NCBI GenBank assembly: GCA_023480735.1
Contig: JAMCXB010000052.1
Coordinates: forward strand, 1 to 64,000
Direction of reading: 5' to 3'
DNA length: 64,000 nucleotides
Source: Bacteroidota bacterium
GTDB lineage: Bacteria; Bacteroidota; Ignavibacteria; Kryptoniales; JAKASW01
In this document: in pieces, positions 7,104-33,977 of the stretch
Numbering within the stretch: the stretch's first letter is position 1
How the letters are laid out: each line of letters begins with the position of its first letter
Translations under genes and position numbers: made by a program
Notes under the pieces: model-generated
Seen by the model: only the letters and a program-made list of their open reading frames with translations
The model's database searches: none
Told to the model about the DNA's origin: nothing

Positions 7104-8291
7104 CTACTTTGGCATCTCCAGGAGGGCAACCTTGTTTTCGTAGTCCGCTATGAGTTGGTCCGACAAGCGCTCTCTATATTTTTCTAGAATCCGGGAGATA
7201 TTGCTGACCGTTCGAGGGGAGTTCGATATCTGATCGTTTTTGCACGCGCCTTGCACAAGCGATACGAACTCTGAGTCGGAATAATTCGTGAATTCGGAGA
7301 GCAAGTTTGAGAACATGATGGATTGATCGAAGGAAATGCTGGTTGCAAGACTGTTGAAGAAGGCGGCGCGTACGCTGTCGGAGCTCTTTGAACCTGACAG
7401 TATGGCTTTGACTATGGACTGGGCGATGTCTCTTGACGTCTTCCTTTTGCAGTTAAGACATTGGTACTGTTCAAGAAACCCATATGGCTTTTCGTTGAAC
7501 TGGAGCGCGATGATTTTTGCCCTCCCTTGCCCTATTGCAATTCCCATTTCTTGATCGGTCCAGTTTGATCCTCGAAAGCCACCTGTCAAGAACGAGACGA
7601 TGACATCACAGTCTCGTAAATTCTTGATTATCTCCTCGCGCCAAACACTAGACACCGGAATATCTTTGTGAGCAACAAAGACTTCAAACCGTGTTTGTTC
7701 GAACATGTCCGCTACAGACATAACTCGTTTCTTGTCCGCGGTCGAATGGCTGAAGAATACATGAATTTTCTCTGAATGTGAGGTCTCGGACTTGACCTTA
7801 GAGATCCTGACAGCAAATCGCCGTTTCTTGAGGTTCGACTGCCTTATTATCGAGTCGATATGTGCAGAGAACGTCGAAGCAGCGGATAGGTAGATAGAAT
7901 CTAGAGGGATCGTCATCGAGTGTACTTGCTCGTGCCTTCCGGTGCTCGAGGCAAATGATGATGTGCCTCTTCTAGCTCTCTCCCTCATGCTATTTATTAC
8001 CTGGTTTAGCTCTGTGATCAATGCTCGGGTCTGTTCGTGAGTAATAGTATCGGTATTTGGTATTAGGATGTTCTCTACTGCATTGACGAAGGCGTTTCCT
8101 ACGGCTTTCACCGTGTCGGAGTAGATCTTGTTTCTACTGACGTAGGGTGTTGCTGACTTCTGAAATGACGGATCGCGTCCCAGAGCTGAAAATGACTTCG
8201 CCTGCTGGTCTACTAGCTCTCGTACAAGTCTCCCGAATTCTCTCTGCAGCACATCAAAGGCCTCTTGGAATGATTTCTCGTTATCCTTCAT
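7104..8291 (-). CDS. TIR-domain protein, predicted NAD-cleaving defence effector
   Basis: A 395-residue protein. A TIR domain spans about residues 175-310: it opens with KIHVFFSHSTADKK, continues with FEVFVAHKDIP and CDVIVSFLTGGFRGSNWTD, and has the Glu expected for catalysis in W-T-D-Q-E-M-G near residue 247. Bacterial TIR domains of this type cleave NAD+ or make cyclic ADP-ribose-like signals in abortive infection. The N-terminal 170 residues are helical and may sense or oligomerise. The C-terminal 80 residues are unknown. It follows the DUF499 gene by 165 bases with a stable hairpin in the gap, so it may be a separate transcription unit. Thoeris, Pycsar or CBASS partner genes are not seen next to it. 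Confidence 0.75.
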   Translation of the reverse strand: MKDNEKSFQEAFDVLQREFGRLVRELVDQQAKSFSALGRDPSFQKSATPYVSRNKIYSDTVKAVGNAFVNAVENILIPNTDTITHEQTRALITELNQVINSMRERARRGTSSFASSTGRHEQVHSMTIPLDSIYLSAASTFSAHIDSIIRQSNLKKRRFAVRISKVKSETSHSEKIHVFFSHSTADKKRVMSVADMFEQTRFEVFVAHKDIPVSSVWREEIIKNLRDCDVIVSFLTGGFRGSNWTDQEMGIAIGQGRAKIIALQFNEKPYGFLEQYQCLNCKRKTSRDIAQSIVKAILSGSKSSDSVRAAFFNSLATSISFDQSIMFSNLLSEFTNYSDSEFVSLVQGACKNDQISNSPRTVSNISRILEKYRERLSDQLIADYENKVALLEMPK

Positions 8292-8319
8292 CGCGCTATC
8301 ACCATTCCAATATTTACTA

Positions 8320-8373
8320 CGCTGGGTGTCCCTAAAGGCTTAACCAGGAATAAGTGCGAAAGGATACCCAGCG
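8320..8373. other. Long hairpin between TIR and DUF499 genes
   Basis: A 12-base arm at 8320-8331 (CGCTGGGTGTCC) pairs with 8362-8373 (GGATACCCAGCG) with one mismatch that is a G-U wobble in one RNA strand. A short inner stem (GCTTA with TAAGT) extends it. There is no T-run beside it, so it is not a plain terminator. It may attenuate read-through from the DUF499 operon into the TIR gene or be a recombination hairpin. Confidence 0.5.
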
Positions 8374-8456
8374 TTATGCGGAGGATGACCATATTGCTTT
8401 TCATTCTGCAACCTCTCGGATGATGCCGAAGCAACCATGACTGTAGTTTTCAGCCT

Positions 8457-11400
8457 TCATTCTTTCTCAAACCCATGACTCCCAAACTTCAAGGTTCTGC
8501 AATTCTCAGTGACTGTTCGGACAACCTGGTCTGAAGCGCCTGTGGGGATATCAGCCTCGACTTCCAGAGTGACGCGGACGTTCGCGCCGAGGAGACCTGA
8601 AAGATGGGAGATGACTTCTTCCGCAATCCGACCTGCATCGCGGCCAACACGCTCAGGATCAAGCGTCACTGTGCCATGGAACCGGTGGGGCAAATCTGCC
8701 GGAGGTGCCTTTGTCTGTTCCACCTCACTTTTGCCAGGGACACTGGAGTCAGTGCCGGCAGCGATAGCTGCCGCGCCGGTGGCCGCAGCGGCGGCTGCGG
8801 GAACTTCGGCATCGAGTTGACGCCTGGCTACGTCGCTTCTTACGAGTAGGCCTGCGCTGTCAAGGGTAAGTGTGAGCTGCTGCCCAGCACGCAGTCCAAC
8901 ATATCGGCTGGCGGTTTCATCGAAGCGCTCCGCAAATGCAAATGTATCCGTCTGCCACGTGATGAATGAGACTCCATCGCGGATCGCCTGGATGAGCACC
9001 TCCGGGCCGGTAAGCCTGGGAAGATAAAGGTAGCGTGCGAAGTCTTCGATGAGCTGTTTGATAGGAACGTGGTTCCCTCTCCAGAGAGGCACTTCATCGA
9101 GATATTTCCGAAGGATGGTCGAGCCGAGGCCGGTCACGAGGATATCACTGCTCCGGAGCTTCCTGGATGCCCGGACGGCGAGTGCATTTCCCCCGTTTGT
9201 GAGCCGAATAGACTGCCATTCGACCTGCGACTGAGGCGTTTTCTGCTCTGGTACTAAAAGCCACTGGTACACCTCAGGTATCTGCGCTGAGACAGCTGCG
9301 TCTGCCGCCTGCTTCTGAGTCTCGGCCTGTCGTGCCTGGTGCGGATCCAGGTTGAGTGTTTCTTTGTCTTCCACTATCGACTTCCATGCAAGGTACCTTC
9401 GCAGAGCCTCATCGAGGTCCTGCATGCGCGCTTGATCGGCAGCAAGGAAGACCAGGGTGTTACGATAAGTACGGGGTATGGTGCCGCGCATCTCTAAGAT
9501 GGATTTCGCCTCGGTCAATGCGGCGCTCTTCGGATCTTTGCTGTGTGGCTTCTCGGCCGGCAGCACTACGAGACGTGCATCAAGATCATCCGGGACATCG
9601 GCTGTCGACCGGGGAACCGGATGGACGCGTGAAAAATCCCCCTTGTTCCGGATATCCTCGCGCAGCGTTGATTCCAGCTCGTGAGATACTTTGTCGGTGT
9701 CCCGCTTGAATTGCTCGGCGCGATCTTCAGCGAGCTTGGTGACGGTCGGTTGTGTCCCGTACCAAAACCGGCTTCCGTCCTGATACAGAAAAGTAGCCGT
9801 GCTGGCGAGCCTTCGGAGTGCGTCACCGAAGATAGCGGGTGATTCTCCTGGCATGACGCAACCGAGTCTGATGCGTCTGTCTTCAAGCCCGCGGTGGGAG
9901 GCCCCGGCTGTGGGCGCTGAGCCGAGGTAAATGGTGCGTGCCACCCTCCGCGTCGCATGTAACTTGCCAAGGTTCGGCAGATCCGAATCTATACGGAGAG
10001 GCATGGAATTCGGACCGTCCACATCCTTTTCGATTATCGGCATCCAGTTGTCGGAGAGATAACGCGTAAGCTCGAACTGCACACGTTGATCATCAATGGG
10101 GATCATACATGGAAGGATAAGCGGGTTCTTATCTCCCTTCTCCCACAAGGTGTGGATTACTGTCGCCATCAGGCGCAGCACTCCGCGGGTGCGCTGGAAC
10201 TTGGCGAGGGTGGACCAGTCGGTATAGAGCCGATCGAAGATTTCGGGATGGATCGGGTAAGCAGCTTTTATCCGCTCTTCGTAGTCACGATTCTTGCACT
10301 CGGGCGGAAACTCTGCAGCCTGTGTCCTATACACTTCCGCAAAAGCCTGGGCGGTTATGTCTCGCTGCTTGAAGGCCTCTGAACCGGGCAAGGCTTCGAA
10401 AAGGCGCCGCCTCACTATTTCAAACCCTTCCTCCGCGGTGGCGGGACGCCATGATGACTCGACCCGGCCGACGACGTTGCGCAGGCGATCGAGCGCTTCC
10501 CTTCCACGGATGCCTCCAACCTCGACATCATCCGCCTGAATGTAAGGGGACACACCACCATCGGAAGCCGGCAGCGAAATAACCAGAAGGCAGTTCTTAG
10601 CTGCCTTGGCAGACTCGGTCAGCAGCTGCGCGAAAGTGAACTGCGTCCCAAAACTTCCAGCAGGCAGATCGCTCTCGTCGTGGAGCTGACGGGCATAAGC
10701 TACCCATTCATCGATCAAGACCAGCGAGGGACCATGTTCAACCAGCAATGTCCGCAGGACGTCGCCGGGGCTGGTGGCGTGCTCATCGTCTTTTGCAATC
10801 CTTTGAAATGCCCTTTTGCCCCCGAGTTGATAAGCGAGCTCGCCCCAGAGTGTGCGTACAACTGTTCCATCAGGCTTGACGGATGGATTGCCCGGAGAGA
10901 TCCTGTTGCCGACCAGCACAACCCGGTTTGCTTTCGGGATCTTCTTTACACCCGATTCCGCGAGCAGCCCTTCCACACCAGGCATCTCGCCAGCCGCAGT
11001 ACCGGAGAAAAGGTGGTAGAGGGCCAACATGGAGTGAGTTTTGCCGCCTCCAAAATTTGTTTGAAGCTGTACGACAGGATCGCCGGCTTCCCCGGATAGG
11101 CGCTGAAGGGAGCTAACCAACAAACGCTTGAGGCTCTCGGTCAGATACGTGCGGCGAAAGAACTCCCTGGGATTCCGGTACTCTTCACTTCCTTCGTCCA
11201 GATAGACCTGCCACAGGTCGGCGGCAAACTCGGCCTGCTGATAACGGCCGCTGGCAACGTCGGCATGAGGAGTGACCACCTCGCGCCACGGTTTCAACGC
11301 CCCCGTCGCGGCTCCCTCGATAAGGGATGCAGCAGCCTTGCGTTTCTCACCGCGCACCTGCTCGTCGAAACGGACCCGCAGCAATTCCATCTTCATCTTC

Positions 11401-26997: not shown

Positions 26998-27139
26998 TAG
27001 ACGTCCGCATAGAAGTGAGGGGCGAGACCAGAATAGTCAAACCGGGGAGTCCGAGACGAATGAAGAGTGTGGAGACGTTGTGAGCTATTAACTGCAAGGC
27101 GTATCATTTTGTGATACTTTTTGCAGACGATAGCTTCTC

Positions 27140-27295
27140 GTTCTTTCGTCTTGACACGAAAGAACCAAAGGGTCAAGACTGCAGAAAAAATGGCTGGAAA
27201 TTCCTCCGCTCCGCTGAAACAAATAAAATACTGAGGAGACATACGGAATAGAGTAACTCCATATTTGTTTCTGAACGCTTCGCTCCGAAATTTCC
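27140..27295. repeat. Structured pseudoknot element, copy 1 (divergent)
   Basis: GTTCTTTCGT (27,140-27,149) pairs perfectly with ACGAAAGAAC (27,156-27,165). The 6-base loop CTTGAC (27,150-27,155) is complementary to GTCAAG at 27,172-27,177, allowing an H-type pseudoknot. Downstream, GGAAATT (27,196-27,202) pairs with AATTTCC (27,289-27,295), enclosing AACAAATA (27,218-27,225) with TATTTGTT (27,262-27,269). The fold matches the two copies at 30,357 and 33,753 though the bases differ. The minus strand here carries a 102-codon open frame that I regard as a by-product. The element lies 5' of the ATPase gene. A small GTATCA/TGATAC hairpin with a T-run precedes it (27,111-27,125). Confidence 0.7.
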
Positions 27296-27321
27296 TGGTC
27301 GTCATTTTTTCTGGATGTCGA

Positions 27322-29058: not shown

Positions 29059-29092
29059 CCCTCACCTTAATCCTCTCCCATCAAGGGAGAGG
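29059..29092. repeat. REP-like palindrome, CCTCTCCC/GGGAGAGG type
   Basis: CCCTCACC is followed by CCTCTCCC, a 5-base loop and GGGAGAGG. It lies in the 46-bp gap between two element genes and may also act as a weak hairpin between them. A second, better copy is at 29,655-29,689. Confidence 0.7.
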
Positions 29093-29098
29093 AGGCTG

Positions 29099-30292
29099 CT
29101 AGCGAACGACCCTTTTCCATAGGCTTTCCAGAAACTTGAGTTCGTCGGGAGTGAAGCCGGAGTAGTCATGAGAATAGCTATCAGCGAGGATGCGAGCGAG
29201 CTTCTCACGGGCTTTGCGTTTGTTGATCGCGAGGTATCGGGTGGCATCGACGGTGGCACTGATAAGGACCTGGGCGTCCTCTTCCCTTTCGATTGCAGGC
29301 TGGTCTGGCGCAGGGTCGGCGTTGATGAACTGCCTGAGATCAGAAGAGGCTTCGGGAGAAGAGCTCGCTAGCGCACGGTTTAGTACGCGCGCGGCGCGAG
29401 CTCGCCCGAGGAGAGCGACGAGAGCTGAACGTAGTTCAGCGAAAAGAGCGATGAGCTGCGGGGATGCGGGCTGTGTCGCCGGCAGCGAAGGCGGGTCGTC
29501 CGGAACCAGTTCCTTAGAGGAATCCATCGTCGGCTCGTCTCGGTCAGCCGGCAAAGGAAGCGTGGATTTGTGAGGCCGAGTGTGAGTTGTAGACGATGCC
29601 AAAATTGACTGGAGAATGGAATCAAGTGAGTGCTCGGACTCTTTGCAAACACCGCCCTCACCCAAGCCCTCTCCCAAAACGGGAGAGGGATGCGCATTGC
29701 TTTGGGAAACAGCCGCTTTGTTCTTGTCGATGTCATAGAGCAGGAGGCGGTTTGAAGATCTCAGTTGAGCATTGGTGAAGCGAGCGAATACTGTGGAGAC
29801 ACTTGTGGTGTTATGGTTCACGTCAAGGACGGTTATCACCGGCTCAGCAACGTTAGTGAAATCGTCTAGTTCGAGATAAGCACTTTCAAAGTCAACTGCT
29901 TCCATGGCTGACACGATTTGTTTTCTCGTCATACCGTCAGGTTTGAGCTTGAGTGATGGGGTGTAGCGGATTGTGTCCCGGAACTTGCTTAGCTGTTCCA
30001 TTGGCACCTTGTAAAGAGAGACACTGGCCGAGCTGTCTGCCTTGTGGGTGCGAAACATCTGCAAGACTGCCGTGACGTCGAGCGCGAACCGGAGGTCAGG
30101 TGTCATCCGGAACGAGCCGAAGATTTCGTTGGACTGGAACATGAGGATGTCGTAGAAATGGTTTTGAGAATCCTGAAGATATGAAGTCATGACATACCCG
30201 GAAACATCGGGTGTTTGTGATTGAATGAGCAGCAGCGGATCTATATTTGCGGCGGGAACAGGCCCGAGTATTTTGACTGCGGAATCGATCAT
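29099..30292 (-). CDS. Unknown element protein with a REP-derived insertion
   Basis: A 397-residue protein I do not recognise. The N-terminal 190 residues look like a compact mixed alpha/beta domain (for example ANIDPLLLIQSQTPDVSGYV). Residues about 202-213 (SPVLGEGLGEGG) come from a palindromic repeat inserted in frame. A Pro/Ser/Ala-rich linker follows, then a helical C-terminal domain (about 275-397) ending DELKFLESLWKRVVR. No signal peptide or membrane helix is seen. It is the first gene of a two-gene unit with the YdjM-HlyD fusion and sits just downstream of the structured element at 30,357. Confidence 0.55.
   Translation of the reverse strand: MIDSAVKILGPVPAANIDPLLLIQSQTPDVSGYVMTSYLQDSQNHFYDILMFQSNEIFGSFRMTPDLRFALDVTAVLQMFRTHKADSSASVSLYKVPMEQLSKFRDTIRYTPSLKLKPDGMTRKQIVSAMEAVDFESAYLELDDFTNVAEPVITVLDVNHNTTSVSTVFARFTNAQLRSSNRLLLYDIDKNKAAVSQSNAHPSPVLGEGLGEGGVCKESEHSLDSILQSILASSTTHTRPHKSTLPLPADRDEPTMDSSKELVPDDPPSLPATQPASPQLIALFAELRSALVALLGRARAARVLNRALASSSPEASSDLRQFINADPAPDQPAIEREEDAQVLISATVDATRYLAINKRKAREKLARILADSYSHDYSGFTPDELKFLESLWKRVVR
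29655..29689. repeat. REP-like palindrome inside a coding region
   Basis: CCCTCACCC, then CCCTCTCCC, a 5-base loop and GGGAGAGGG. It is in frame in the 29,099-30,292 gene and encodes SPVLGEGLGEGG. Same family as 29,059-29,092. Confidence 0.75.
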
Positions 30293-30356
30293 GTATGTAG
30301 GGCACTTTGCTAACCCTCAGGATAGAGAGTTACGAAATAGTTGTGAGTATTTTCCT

Positions 30357-30580
30357 GTTCACTTTCTTTTGCCACCCGAAAGAAAGTGAACCGAAAGAAA
30401 AGGGTGCCCGTGAAAATGGTCCCGACCCACAGGCGGTGGATCGGGACCGTCACGTTCCCTGTACAGGGAGGCGATTTCAATACACTGTGGCAAGTCTGGA
30501 ACGATGGAGATCGCGAAATCGCCTCTTGAAGAGCCTTGCAAGTTTCGGTTTAAGGAAACGTGACTCCATTTTCGCAAGGG
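30357..30580. repeat. Structured pseudoknot element, copy 2
   Basis: A 13-bp hairpin pairs GTTCACTTTCTTT (30,357-30,369) with 30,379-30,391. Its loop CACCC (30,373-30,377) matches GGGTG at 30,402-30,406 (pseudoknot). Further stems are GGTCCCGA (30,418-30,425) with 30,441-30,448; CACGTTCCC (30,451-30,459) with GGAAACGTG (30,554-30,562, one mismatch); GAGGCGATTTC (30,468-30,478) with 30,515-30,525; and GAAAATGG (30,412-30,419) with CCATTTTC (30,566-30,573). It is nearly the same as the copy at 33,753. It lies 64 bases 5' of the unknown 397-residue gene. No convincing gene is present in the 385-base gap. Confidence 0.85.
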
Positions 30581-30677
30581 AAGACAAATATGGTGGAAAC
30601 CACTTGGAGATCGTCGGGCCACAAAGCGACTATACCAGCTGCGAGCATTCTTGTTCGTCATTTTTCCCGGATGCCAT

Positions 30678-31745
30678 TTATGGAGCAGTTGCGGATTTTG
30701 AGGAGCCGGAACTGAAGCGATCGAGGCCCTTACCTTCAGCGTTCCATTCGACAGTGAAGTATGATGAGTCACCCTTGGCGTAGAACTTAAGCACCGAGGT
30801 GCCAGCGATCTTCTGTTTCCGACTGACAGCAATCTTCCCTTCCGTCTGGTAAATCCACTGTATAGTGGGATGCTGTTGGAGCTTTGCGATGACTTCTGGG
30901 GCCGGATGTCCATAGCTGTTGTTGCGGCCGAGGCTGATGAAGACGCACGTCGGAGAGAGCGCCGAGATAAACGTTGGATTTGTTGACGAGCGGCTGCCGT
31001 GGTGATTGAGTTTCATTGCCTCAGCGTGTCCAACGACACCTGCTACGGGCGTTTCCAGGTCGACGGCATCTCCAACGTCATAGCCAGTCAGGTCTCCGCC
31101 GCTGAAGTAAGTAAACATCGTTCGTGGTTCGTAGTTCGTGGTCGATTGCCTGAGGGTATCTACGAAAGTGATGGTGAATGCGATGGAAAGAGAGTTCTCG
31201 TCCATATGGCTCAAAGCTGATAGGTCATGGCTCATAGCCTGGCCCCGTTCGCATTTGCCGGCCGCAGCAATAAAATGGAGAATGATATCCGGAGCTATCT
31301 GGTAGGTCAGCCCGGGTTGTACAGCTATCCTTGGGCGGATCCCTACCGACGAAACGTAATCAGCGTAGGTTTTGGACTTTGGGACGGGATGCTCGGTTCC
31401 GCGATCGAAGATGGTGTCGACGTCAAGGGCATTTAGGACCTCACCAAGTCCCCCAATGTGATCAGCGTGATAGTGCGATGCGATGAGATAATTGATATGG
31501 GAAATTCTGAGCGATTTCAGATACGGAATCACCGTCGATTTGCCCATGCCGTTGTTGCCAGCGTCGACCAGGATTGTCCTCCAGCGAGTCTGTATGAACG
31601 TACAGTCGCCCTGGCCAACGTCAATGTGATGGATGATCAGGTCCTGGGCGGAACAGAAGCCAGAGGTCAGAAACAGGAGGAAGGAAATCAGAGGACAGAA
31701 GTCAGATGTCAGCAGAATTGATGACAGACGGTAGAGCTTCCTCAT
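30678..31745 (-). CDS. ComEC/Rec2-like metallo-beta-lactamase-fold hydrolase, exported
   Basis: A 355-residue MBL-fold protein like the C-terminal nuclease-type domain of ComEC. Motifs are HHIDVGQGDCTFI near 39-51, the metal site SHYHADHIGG near 90-99, FSGGDLTGYD near 217-226 and LNHHGSRSS near 246-254. An N-terminal hydrophobic stretch ends at FCSAQ near 34, so it is probably exported. Three repeat-derived segments interrupt it: TSDFCPLISFL-type in the signal region, SHDLSALSH, and TTNYEPRT in a surface loop before the FSGGD motif. It overlaps the TolC-like gene by 4 bases. Substrate may be DNA or a nucleotide; that is inference from family. Confidence 0.75.
   Translation of the reverse strand: MRKLYRLSSILLTSDFCPLISFLLFLTSGFCSAQDLIIHHIDVGQGDCTFIQTRWRTILVDAGNNGMGKSTVIPYLKSLRISHINYLIASHYHADHIGGLGEVLNALDVDTIFDRGTEHPVPKSKTYADYVSSVGIRPRIAVQPGLTYQIAPDIILHFIAAAGKCERGQAMSHDLSALSHMDENSLSIAFTITFVDTLRQSTTNYEPRTMFTYFSGGDLTGYDVGDAVDLETPVAGVVGHAEAMKLNHHGSRSSTNPTFISALSPTCVFISLGRNNSYGHPAPEVIAKLQQHPTIQWIYQTEGKIAVSRKQKIAGTSVLKFYAKGDSSYFTVEWNAEGKGLDRFSSGSSKSATAP
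31119..31239. repeat. Two short repeat tracts inside the MBL gene
   Basis: 31,119-31,146 is a tandem TTCGTGGTTCGTAG-type tract that encodes TTNYEPRT. 31,206-31,239 is a GGCTCAAAGCTGATAGG-type tract that encodes AMSHDLSALSH. Both are in frame on the minus strand and sit between conserved MBL motifs. Confidence 0.6.
31653..31712. repeat. CAGAGGTCAGAA-type repeat forming the MBL signal peptide
   Basis: Repeated units of AGAAGCCAGAGGTCAGAA / GAGGACAGAAGTCAGATG. On the minus strand they encode residues about 11-31 of the MBL protein, the hydrophobic core of its export signal. Confidence 0.6.
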
Positions 31746-33724: not shown

Positions 33725-33752
33725 GTTGATATCCTTTCTTCATTAGTCTGTT

Positions 33753-33977
33753 GTTCACTTTCTTTTGTCACCCGAAAGAAAGTGAACCGAAAGAAAAGGG
33801 TGCCCGTGAAAATGGTCCCGATCCACCAGTTGTGTATCGGGACCGTCACGTTCCCTGTGAAGGGAGGCGATTTTAATACAAGGTTGTAAACACAGGACGG
33901 TTGAAACTCCCAAAATCGCCTCTTGAAGAGATTTGCGAGATTCTGTAGACGGGAACGTGACTCCATTTTCGCAAGGG
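33753..33977. repeat. Structured pseudoknot element, copy 3
   Basis: Same architecture as copy 2. The 13-bp hairpin is 33,753-33,765 with 33,775-33,787. Loop CACCC (33,769-33,773) pairs with GGGTG (33,798-33,802). GGTCCCGAT (33,814-33,822) pairs with ATCGGGACC (33,836-33,844). CACGTTCCC (33,847-33,855) pairs with GGGAACGTG (33,951-33,959), perfect here. GAGGCGATTTT (33,864-33,874) pairs with AAAATCGCCTC (33,912-33,922). GAAAATGG (33,808-33,815) pairs with CCATTTTC (33,963-33,970). Compared with copy 2, the tip of the GAGGCG stem changes from C-G to T-A. Minus-strand open frames across it are not believed to be genes. Confidence 0.85.

What the first reader, a model, noticed from the sequence alone, without database searches (positions are those of the whole stretch)
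30357..30580. Repeat family with a conserved H-type pseudoknot and nested stems
In each of three copies the loop of the first hairpin is complementary to a segment 6-10 bases past the hairpin: CACCC with GGGTG in two copies and CTTGAC with GTCAAG in the third. Nested palindromes follow. Loop-tail pairing kept with different bases points to a selected fold, not chance. I do not recognise it as a named RNA family. It could be a leader RNA, a free ncRNA, or a ssDNA hairpin substrate for a transposase.
Basis: partly seen in the sequence, partly recalled or inferred. Interest (0 to 1): 0.85.

Follow-up and report, generated by a model that had tools for sequence, protein, structure and literature searches.

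The report
Mobile DNA repeats with triplex-pseudoknot hairpin
This stretch is one copy of a small gene-less repeat that spreads through bacterial genomes and whose single strand is built to fold into a hairpin locked by a loop-tail pseudoknot and, very probably, a third DNA strand; related repeats in several phyla change all three strands in step, which suggests that selection keeps the fold.

Summary
Window 30356-30580 and 33752-33977 are two copies of a ~226-bp intergenic repeat (type A); 27138-27315 is a diverged relative (type B). Both recur in the Bacteroidota genus (type A in 13/13 genomes, B in 12/13). Covariation supports the whole fold, including the loop-tail pseudoknot, against shuffle and slide controls. 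No Rfam family matches. Presence/absence between syntenic genomes, type B nested in type A, and CTAG-flanked B-A composites (one inside a gene) show mobility.

The linker between hairpin and pseudoknot tail is the mirror image of the hairpin's purine arm and covaries with it (fixed-register permutation z=5.3; weaker, p=0.08, if register is free). That is the signature of an antiparallel purine-motif triple helix capped by the pseudoknot. The same hairpin module occurs in other Bacteroidota, in Pseudomonadota and Fusobacteriota plasmids, and in viral contigs. Purine triplexes do not form in RNA, and G-T mismatches are no commoner than A-C, so selection probably acts on single-stranded DNA.

Best filing: a pseudoknot-capped variant of known intrastrand-triplex repeats (BoxC/PIT/TM_ECO), inside a non-autonomous mobile element. 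The mobilising enzyme is unknown; RAYT shows no association.

The parts
30356..30580 (+). type A element, copy 1 (the finding)
   Evidence: nhmmer 208 bits over the whole model; 19-copy alignment A1
30357..30391 (+). P1 hairpin: pyrimidine arm 30357-30370, purine arm 30378-30391
   Evidence: 97% of cells paired, 4 pairs with double-sided changes
30373..30377 (+). pseudoknot 5' strand CACCC in the P1 loop
   Evidence: pairs with 30402-30406; 4 of 5 pairs covary
30392..30401 (+). linker CGAAAGAAAA, mirror of the purine arm; proposed third strand of the triplex
   Evidence: permutation z=5.3 in fixed register; free register p=0.08
30402..30406 (+). pseudoknot 3' strand GGGTG
30407..30580 (+). closed arm: P2 30407-30419/30566-30580, P3 30420-30425/30441-30446, P4 30449-30459/30554-30564, P5 30468-30478/30515-30525
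   Evidence: 83-96% of cells paired per helix, with double-sided changes
33752..33977 (+). type A element, copy 2; absent from the syntenic site in relative G002
   Evidence: nhmmer 220 bits; presence/absence
27138..27315 (+). type B element: P1 27140-27148/27157-27165, PK 27150-27155/27172-27177, closing stem 27182-27194/27301-27313
   Evidence: nhmmer 154 bits

Best explanation
A non-autonomous, gene-less mobile DNA repeat whose functional form is a folded single DNA strand. When the strand is exposed (for example on a lagging-strand template), P1 snaps into a hairpin with a pyrimidine 5' arm and a purine 3' arm. The purine linker folds back up the major groove, antiparallel to the purine arm, giving A.A-T and G.G-C triads. 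The tail GGGTG/GGGCG then pairs with the loop CACCC/CGCCC and locks the triplex as an H-type pseudoknot, while the rest of the element closes into one long branched hairpin whose ends coincide with the element ends. The locked knot probably marks or protects the element end for an unidentified host or trans-acting recombination or replication process that copies and inserts it. Shown: the covarying helices and pseudoknot, mobility and copy spread, and the mirror relation in fixed register. Inferred: that the triplex forms in cells, that DNA rather than RNA is the selected form, and the mobilisation step.
For: Mirror rule: arm AAAAGAAAG with linker GAAAGAAAA, AAAGGAAAA/AAAAGGAAA, AAGAGAAAA/AAAAGAGAA in type A. 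It recurs in other taxa: Pasteurella AAAGAAAA/AAAAGAAA, Variovorax AAGAAAA/AAAAGAA, viral contigs AAGAGAAA/AAAGAGAA found with a pattern blind to the linker. Permutation: mirror z=5.3, 0 of 20000; direct-copy z=-0.3 (39 distinct arm/linker pairs). Pseudoknot and helix covariation. G-T 21 against A-C 19 mismatched cells in type A helices, so no RNA-strand preference. Both strands fold well as DNA, z -5.7 and -6.1. PMC4666352 states that purine-motif triplexes cannot form in RNA. Mobility: type A in 13/13 genus genomes, 1-12 copies each, presence/absence at two syntenic sites, B inside A (L022), CTAG-bounded composite inside an ORF with frame restored on joining the flanks.
Against: When the register is left free, the mirror is longer in 22 and a direct copy in 11 of 58 pairs (p=0.08), so much of the discrimination rests on the fixed register. 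The A-rich sequences carry little information. The window's own copy 1 has a G.T pair at the loop and scores 7 for mirror and 8 for direct. No experiment shows the fold, and the related TM_ECO triplex was not detected in vivo (PMC4666352). No enzyme is identified. Exact insertion junctions of solo A and B copies could not be resolved.
Confidence: 0.5

Rival explanations
1. A structured RNA (leader, sRNA or mRNA-stability element) carried on a repeat: the fold is selected at RNA level, with P1 and the tail as an ordinary H-type pseudoknot whose A-rich loop lies in the minor groove.
For: Low MFE and strong helix covariation; intergenic position; A-rich pseudoknot loops are common in RNA (own knowledge).
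Against: G.U is no commoner than A.C (21 against 19 cells) and very rare in type B P1 (1 cell). The linker G positions follow the arm, which A-minor contacts would not require. Copies lie in both orientations to flanking genes (type A tends to be antisense, 12 against 4, not independent loci). No Rfam match.
Confidence: 0.2
2. The elements are ssDNA hairpin substrates of a Y1 transposase (RAYT or IS200/IS605), an enlarged REP/REPIN-like family.
For: Y1_Tnp genes in 12 of 13 genus genomes and rare in the sister family; divergent A/B pairs resemble REPIN pairs.
Against: No type A copy, composite end or A/B-like hairpin within 1.5 kb of the 30 Y1 loci examined. Across 395 Bacteroidota, Y1 is in 17/29 motif-positive and 191/366 other genomes, Fisher p=0.57, and motif-rich genomes such as G365, G100, G266, G282 and G238 lack a Y1 match at E<=1e-10.
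Confidence: 0.1
3. The linker is an alternative Watson-Crick partner of the pyrimidine arm (a strand-exchange switch), not a third strand.
For: Because the tracts are nearly symmetric, the linker can also pair with the 5' arm over about 7 bases; with free register the mirror advantage is only p=0.08.
Against: Direct-copy match in fixed register shows no signal (z=-0.3) while the mirror does (z=5.3). Asymmetric cases favour the mirror (L200 8 against 5, L211 7 against 5, L245 7 against 5).
Confidence: 0.1
4. Passive non-B DNA: instability motifs and repeat debris spread by recombination, with no dedicated role.
For: Holder et al. link triplex repeats to local instability and found no other role (PMC4666352); many fragments and nested copies are seen.
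Against: Covariation of every helix and of the pseudoknot across many copies implies purifying selection on the fold, at least for the element's own spread.
Confidence: 0.1

Closest known systems
Class II (Y-R-R) purine-motif intrastrand triplex repeats: BoxC / PIT / TM_ECO (Holder et al. 2015, PMC4666352)
   Same: Pyrimidine arm, purine arm, second purine arm in mirror register on one strand; intergenic; multi-copy; inverted pairs of two subtypes (type A always with type B in E. coli; B-reverse with A-forward here).
   Different: A/T-rich sequence; loop-tail pseudoknot cap not mentioned in that paper (0 hits for 'pseudoknot'); part of a ~180-230-nt element with a conserved closed arm; demonstrably mobile; taxonomic spread includes Bacteroidota and Fusobacteriota.
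REP/REPIN repeats with RAYT (Y1) transposases
   Same: Small intergenic hairpin repeats, often in inverted pairs, non-autonomous.
   Different: No Y1 linkage in cis or across genomes; ten times longer; no GTAG-type tag seen; pseudoknot and mirror linker.
MITEs
   Same: Short, gene-less, mobile; the composite has CTAG at both ends, like a 4-bp target duplication.
   Different: Solo A and B ends are not terminal inverted repeats; the composite ends share only a short internal CTCAGAC motif.
H-type pseudoknot RNAs
   Same: Topology: stem, loop-tail pairing, A-rich third loop.
   Different: Wobble pairs no commoner than A-C mismatches, mirror-covarying loop 3, no transcript evidence.

Membership tests
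Class II intrastrand purine triplex (ITxF) | Y-R-R order on one strand with the second purine tract antiparallel (mirror) to the first, 8 or more triads | tested here: met
   8-9 of 8-9 mirror matches in the main variants; permutation z=5.3 in fixed register; register-free test weaker
Class II intrastrand purine triplex (ITxF) | Loops of 1-6 nt (the published search setting) | tested here: inconclusive
   First loop is 6-8 nt here, depending on whether the closing G-C counts
Class II intrastrand purine triplex (ITxF) | Triplex forms in vitro (CD/NMR) | not testable with these tools
   Needs synthetic DNA
TM_ECO / BoxC / PIT | Consensus CCCTCNCCC N3-6 GGGNGAGGG N3 GGGNGAGGG | tested here: not met
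   The finding is A/T-rich; a true TM_ECO match lies separately at window 29655-29689 (-)
REP/RAYT | Linked or co-occurring Y1 transposase | tested here: not met
Classical MITE (solo A or B) | Terminal inverted repeats | tested here: not met
   Left TGTTC... and right ...CGCAAGGG ends are not complementary
Classical MITE (solo A or B) | Target site duplication | tested here: inconclusive
   Solo copies: syntenic sites too diverged. Composite: CTAG at both ends in several copies
Any Rfam RNA family | Covariance model match | tested here: not met
   None at gathering score; none sensible at E<=10
H-type pseudoknot | Loop-tail helix conserved by compensatory change | tested here: met
   4 of 5 pairs in type A; C-G/U-A 9:9 in type B

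The most novel reading that the evidence does not exclude
A widespread class of pseudoknot-capped intrastrand DNA triplexes, present in at least three bacterial phyla, is under natural selection as a folded single-stranded DNA 'knot' that drives or protects a family of mobile repeats. This would be evolutionary (covariation) evidence that an intrastrand DNA triplex works in living cells.
Probability: 0.35. Interest if true: 0.85.

Novelty: new variant of a known kind. Interest (0 to 1): 0.62.

Why it matters
Whether intrastrand DNA triplexes form in vivo is open: Holder et al. found a stable triplex in vitro but no in vivo support. Here nature has supplied three-strand covariation plus a pseudoknot cap, which turns the question into a direct mutational test on synthetic DNA and in culturable laboratory hosts. 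It also adds a mobile, gene-less element family with an unknown mobiliser.

Tried and rejected
Rfam at gathering score and at E<=10: nothing relevant. Blastn of the full 261-nt element in phages and plasmids: nothing at 1e-5; the short P1 query found plasmid and chromid copies. RAYT/Y1 as mobiliser: rejected as a general partner. Direct-repeat reading of the linker: no signal in fixed register. GG-variant stem outside the genus: not found. Viral-contig pattern CTTTCYYTTG... gave mostly chance or coding matches lacking a linker. Literature search for the motif sequence: no relevant paper. Orientation to genes: no decisive bias.

Full report
Observation. The described feature is real and the coordinates are right to within a base. 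Window 30356-30580 (+) is a ~225-nt element (type A) with a near copy at 33752-33977; the third 'copy' is a diverged relative (type B) at 27138-27315. All three have a hairpin whose loop is complementary to a tail 10 (A) or 6 (B) bases past it. The host is a 2.8-Mb Bacteroidota genome, G000. Named public contigs carrying the type A 3' end are all 'Bacteroidetes bacterium' MAGs.

Family. Type A occurs in all 13 genomes of the genus (1-12 copies each) and in none of 28 genomes outside it by blastn. Type B is found in 12 of 13. Nineteen type A copies support a 60-pair model: P1, pseudoknot, P2-P5. 94% of cells pair, 21 pairs have double-sided changes (shuffled 11.3, 0/500), and slid controls pair 39-57%. 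Type B behaves likewise: 92.6%, 23 of 51 pairs, 0/500. Pseudoknot pairs change together: CACCC/GGGTG, CGCCC/GGGCG, CGTCC/GGACG; CTTGAC/GTCAAG against CTTGAT/ATCAAG 9:9. The shuffle control does not remove relatedness, but the slide control and recurrence in separate families do not share that weakness.

The third strand. The linker between P1 and the pseudoknot tail repeats the purine arm backwards, not complemented. In type A: AAAAGAAAG/GAAAGAAAA, AAAAGAAAA/AAAAGAAAA, AAAGGAAAA/AAAAGGAAA, AAGAGAAAA/AAAAGAGAA. Type B does the same, often with one extra base before the tail. Counting both tracts from the loop/tail junction, 39 distinct arm/linker pairs give a mirror score above all 20000 permutations (z=5.3), while the direct-copy score is at expectation (z=-0.3). 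If the register is left free, the mirror is longer in 22 pairs and the direct copy in 11 (p=0.08). The claim therefore leans on the fixed register that the capped fold imposes. Mirror symmetry of a purine third strand is the signature of the antiparallel purine-motif (reverse-Hoogsteen) triplex. The fold-back runs antiparallel to the purine arm and delivers the tail to the loop, so the pseudoknot would lock the triplex.

Breadth. The exact stem TTTCTTTTG-N4-9-CAAAAGAAA is in 29 of 395 Bacteroidota genomes and 17 of 170 genera, up to 14 copies; the reversed control pattern hits once. Copies in other Bacteroidota keep loop-tail complementarity. Plasmids or chromids of Ilyobacter (Fusobacteriota), Caballeronia (18 places on one replicon), Variovorax, Pasteurella and Burkholderia carry the module, as do viral contigs of unknown host. 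Most of these show both the mirror linker and a loop-tail complement; the Burkholderia cepacia copy has the mirror linker but no clear loop-tail complement.

DNA or RNA. In type A helices, G-T and A-C cells are equally rare (21 and 19 of 1126). Selection on one RNA strand should tolerate G-U and not A-C. Both strands fold well below shuffles as DNA (z -5.7, -6.1). Holder et al. state, citing Semerad and Maher, that purine-motif triplexes cannot form in RNA (PMC4666352). Orientation to flanking genes is mixed. Together these favour single-stranded DNA as the selected form; they do not prove it.

Mobility. In syntenic G002 the site of window 33752-33977 is empty, and G002 has an extra type A copy at C1:10661-10889 where the window has only about 60 nt. 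A type B copy sits inside a type A copy (L022). Divergent B-reverse/A-forward pairs are frequent. In G004 they lie in a ~670-bp composite bounded by CTAG (C71 and C6 99.4% identical, C41 89%). A 463-bp version interrupts an ORF at G000:C28:2041-2503; joining the flanks at a single CTAG keeps the frame (...GYD-LESNN...). At G004:C65 two composite ends meet at one CTAG. No transposase was found with these ends. Y1/RAYT genes are common in the genus, but none of the 30 Y1 loci examined has an element or composite end within 1.5 kb, and Y1 is not associated with the motif across the phylum (17/29 against 191/366, p=0.57).

Known or new. The nearest published kind is the class II intrastrand triplex repeat (BoxC/PIT/TM_ECO; PMC4666352). 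It is stable in vitro, not shown in vivo, intergenic, linked to instability, and in E. coli also arranged as inverted pairs of two subtypes. That paper does not mention pseudoknots and reports no association of TM_ECO with mobile elements. The present family meets the Y-R-R mirror criterion but not the TM_ECO consensus, and adds a covarying pseudoknot cap, a conserved closed arm and demonstrable mobility. I file it as a new variant of a known kind. A search for the motif sequence in the paper library found nothing relevant; subscription papers are not held, so earlier description cannot be excluded.

Shown: family, fold covariation, pseudoknot, mirror relation in fixed register, spread and mobility. 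Inferred: triplex formation in cells, DNA as the functional form, protection or marking of the element end, and an unknown mobilising process.

Noticed in passing
L110 (G004:C71) 7963-8632; L111 6301-6964; L006 2041-2503: CTAG-bounded composite element carrying type B (reverse) and type A (forward); left ends 100% identical at several G004 loci, one insertion inside an ORF in G000; no autonomous partner found.
   Followed up: partly
window 29655-29689 (-): A perfect TM_ECO/BoxC-type triplex motif (CCCTCTCCC-GTTTT-GGGAGAGGG-CTT-GGGTGAGGG) inside the predicted 397-aa ORF.
   Followed up: no
window 29059-29092 (-): A second G/C-rich TM-like motif (CCTCTCCC...GGGAGAGG...GGTGAGGG), at the intergenic site where relative G002 has a type A insertion instead.
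   Followed up: no
window 30654-30683: Fragment resembling the 3' end of type B (TTCGTCATTTTTCCCGGATGCCATTTATGG) just past the type A copy.
   Followed up: no
L028, L029, L015: Small REP-like inserts (for example tgccgctccgacat...atgcggcatggcgcc) sit inside type A copies.
   Followed up: no
L157 (G127:C1:806399-807369), L115 (G003:C81): Tandem arrays of the elements at ~290-nt spacing, in L157 between sulfate-assimilation-type genes.
   Followed up: no
genus genomes: Up to 11 Y1-transposase matches per genome in this genus, nearly none in the sister family.
   Followed up: partly
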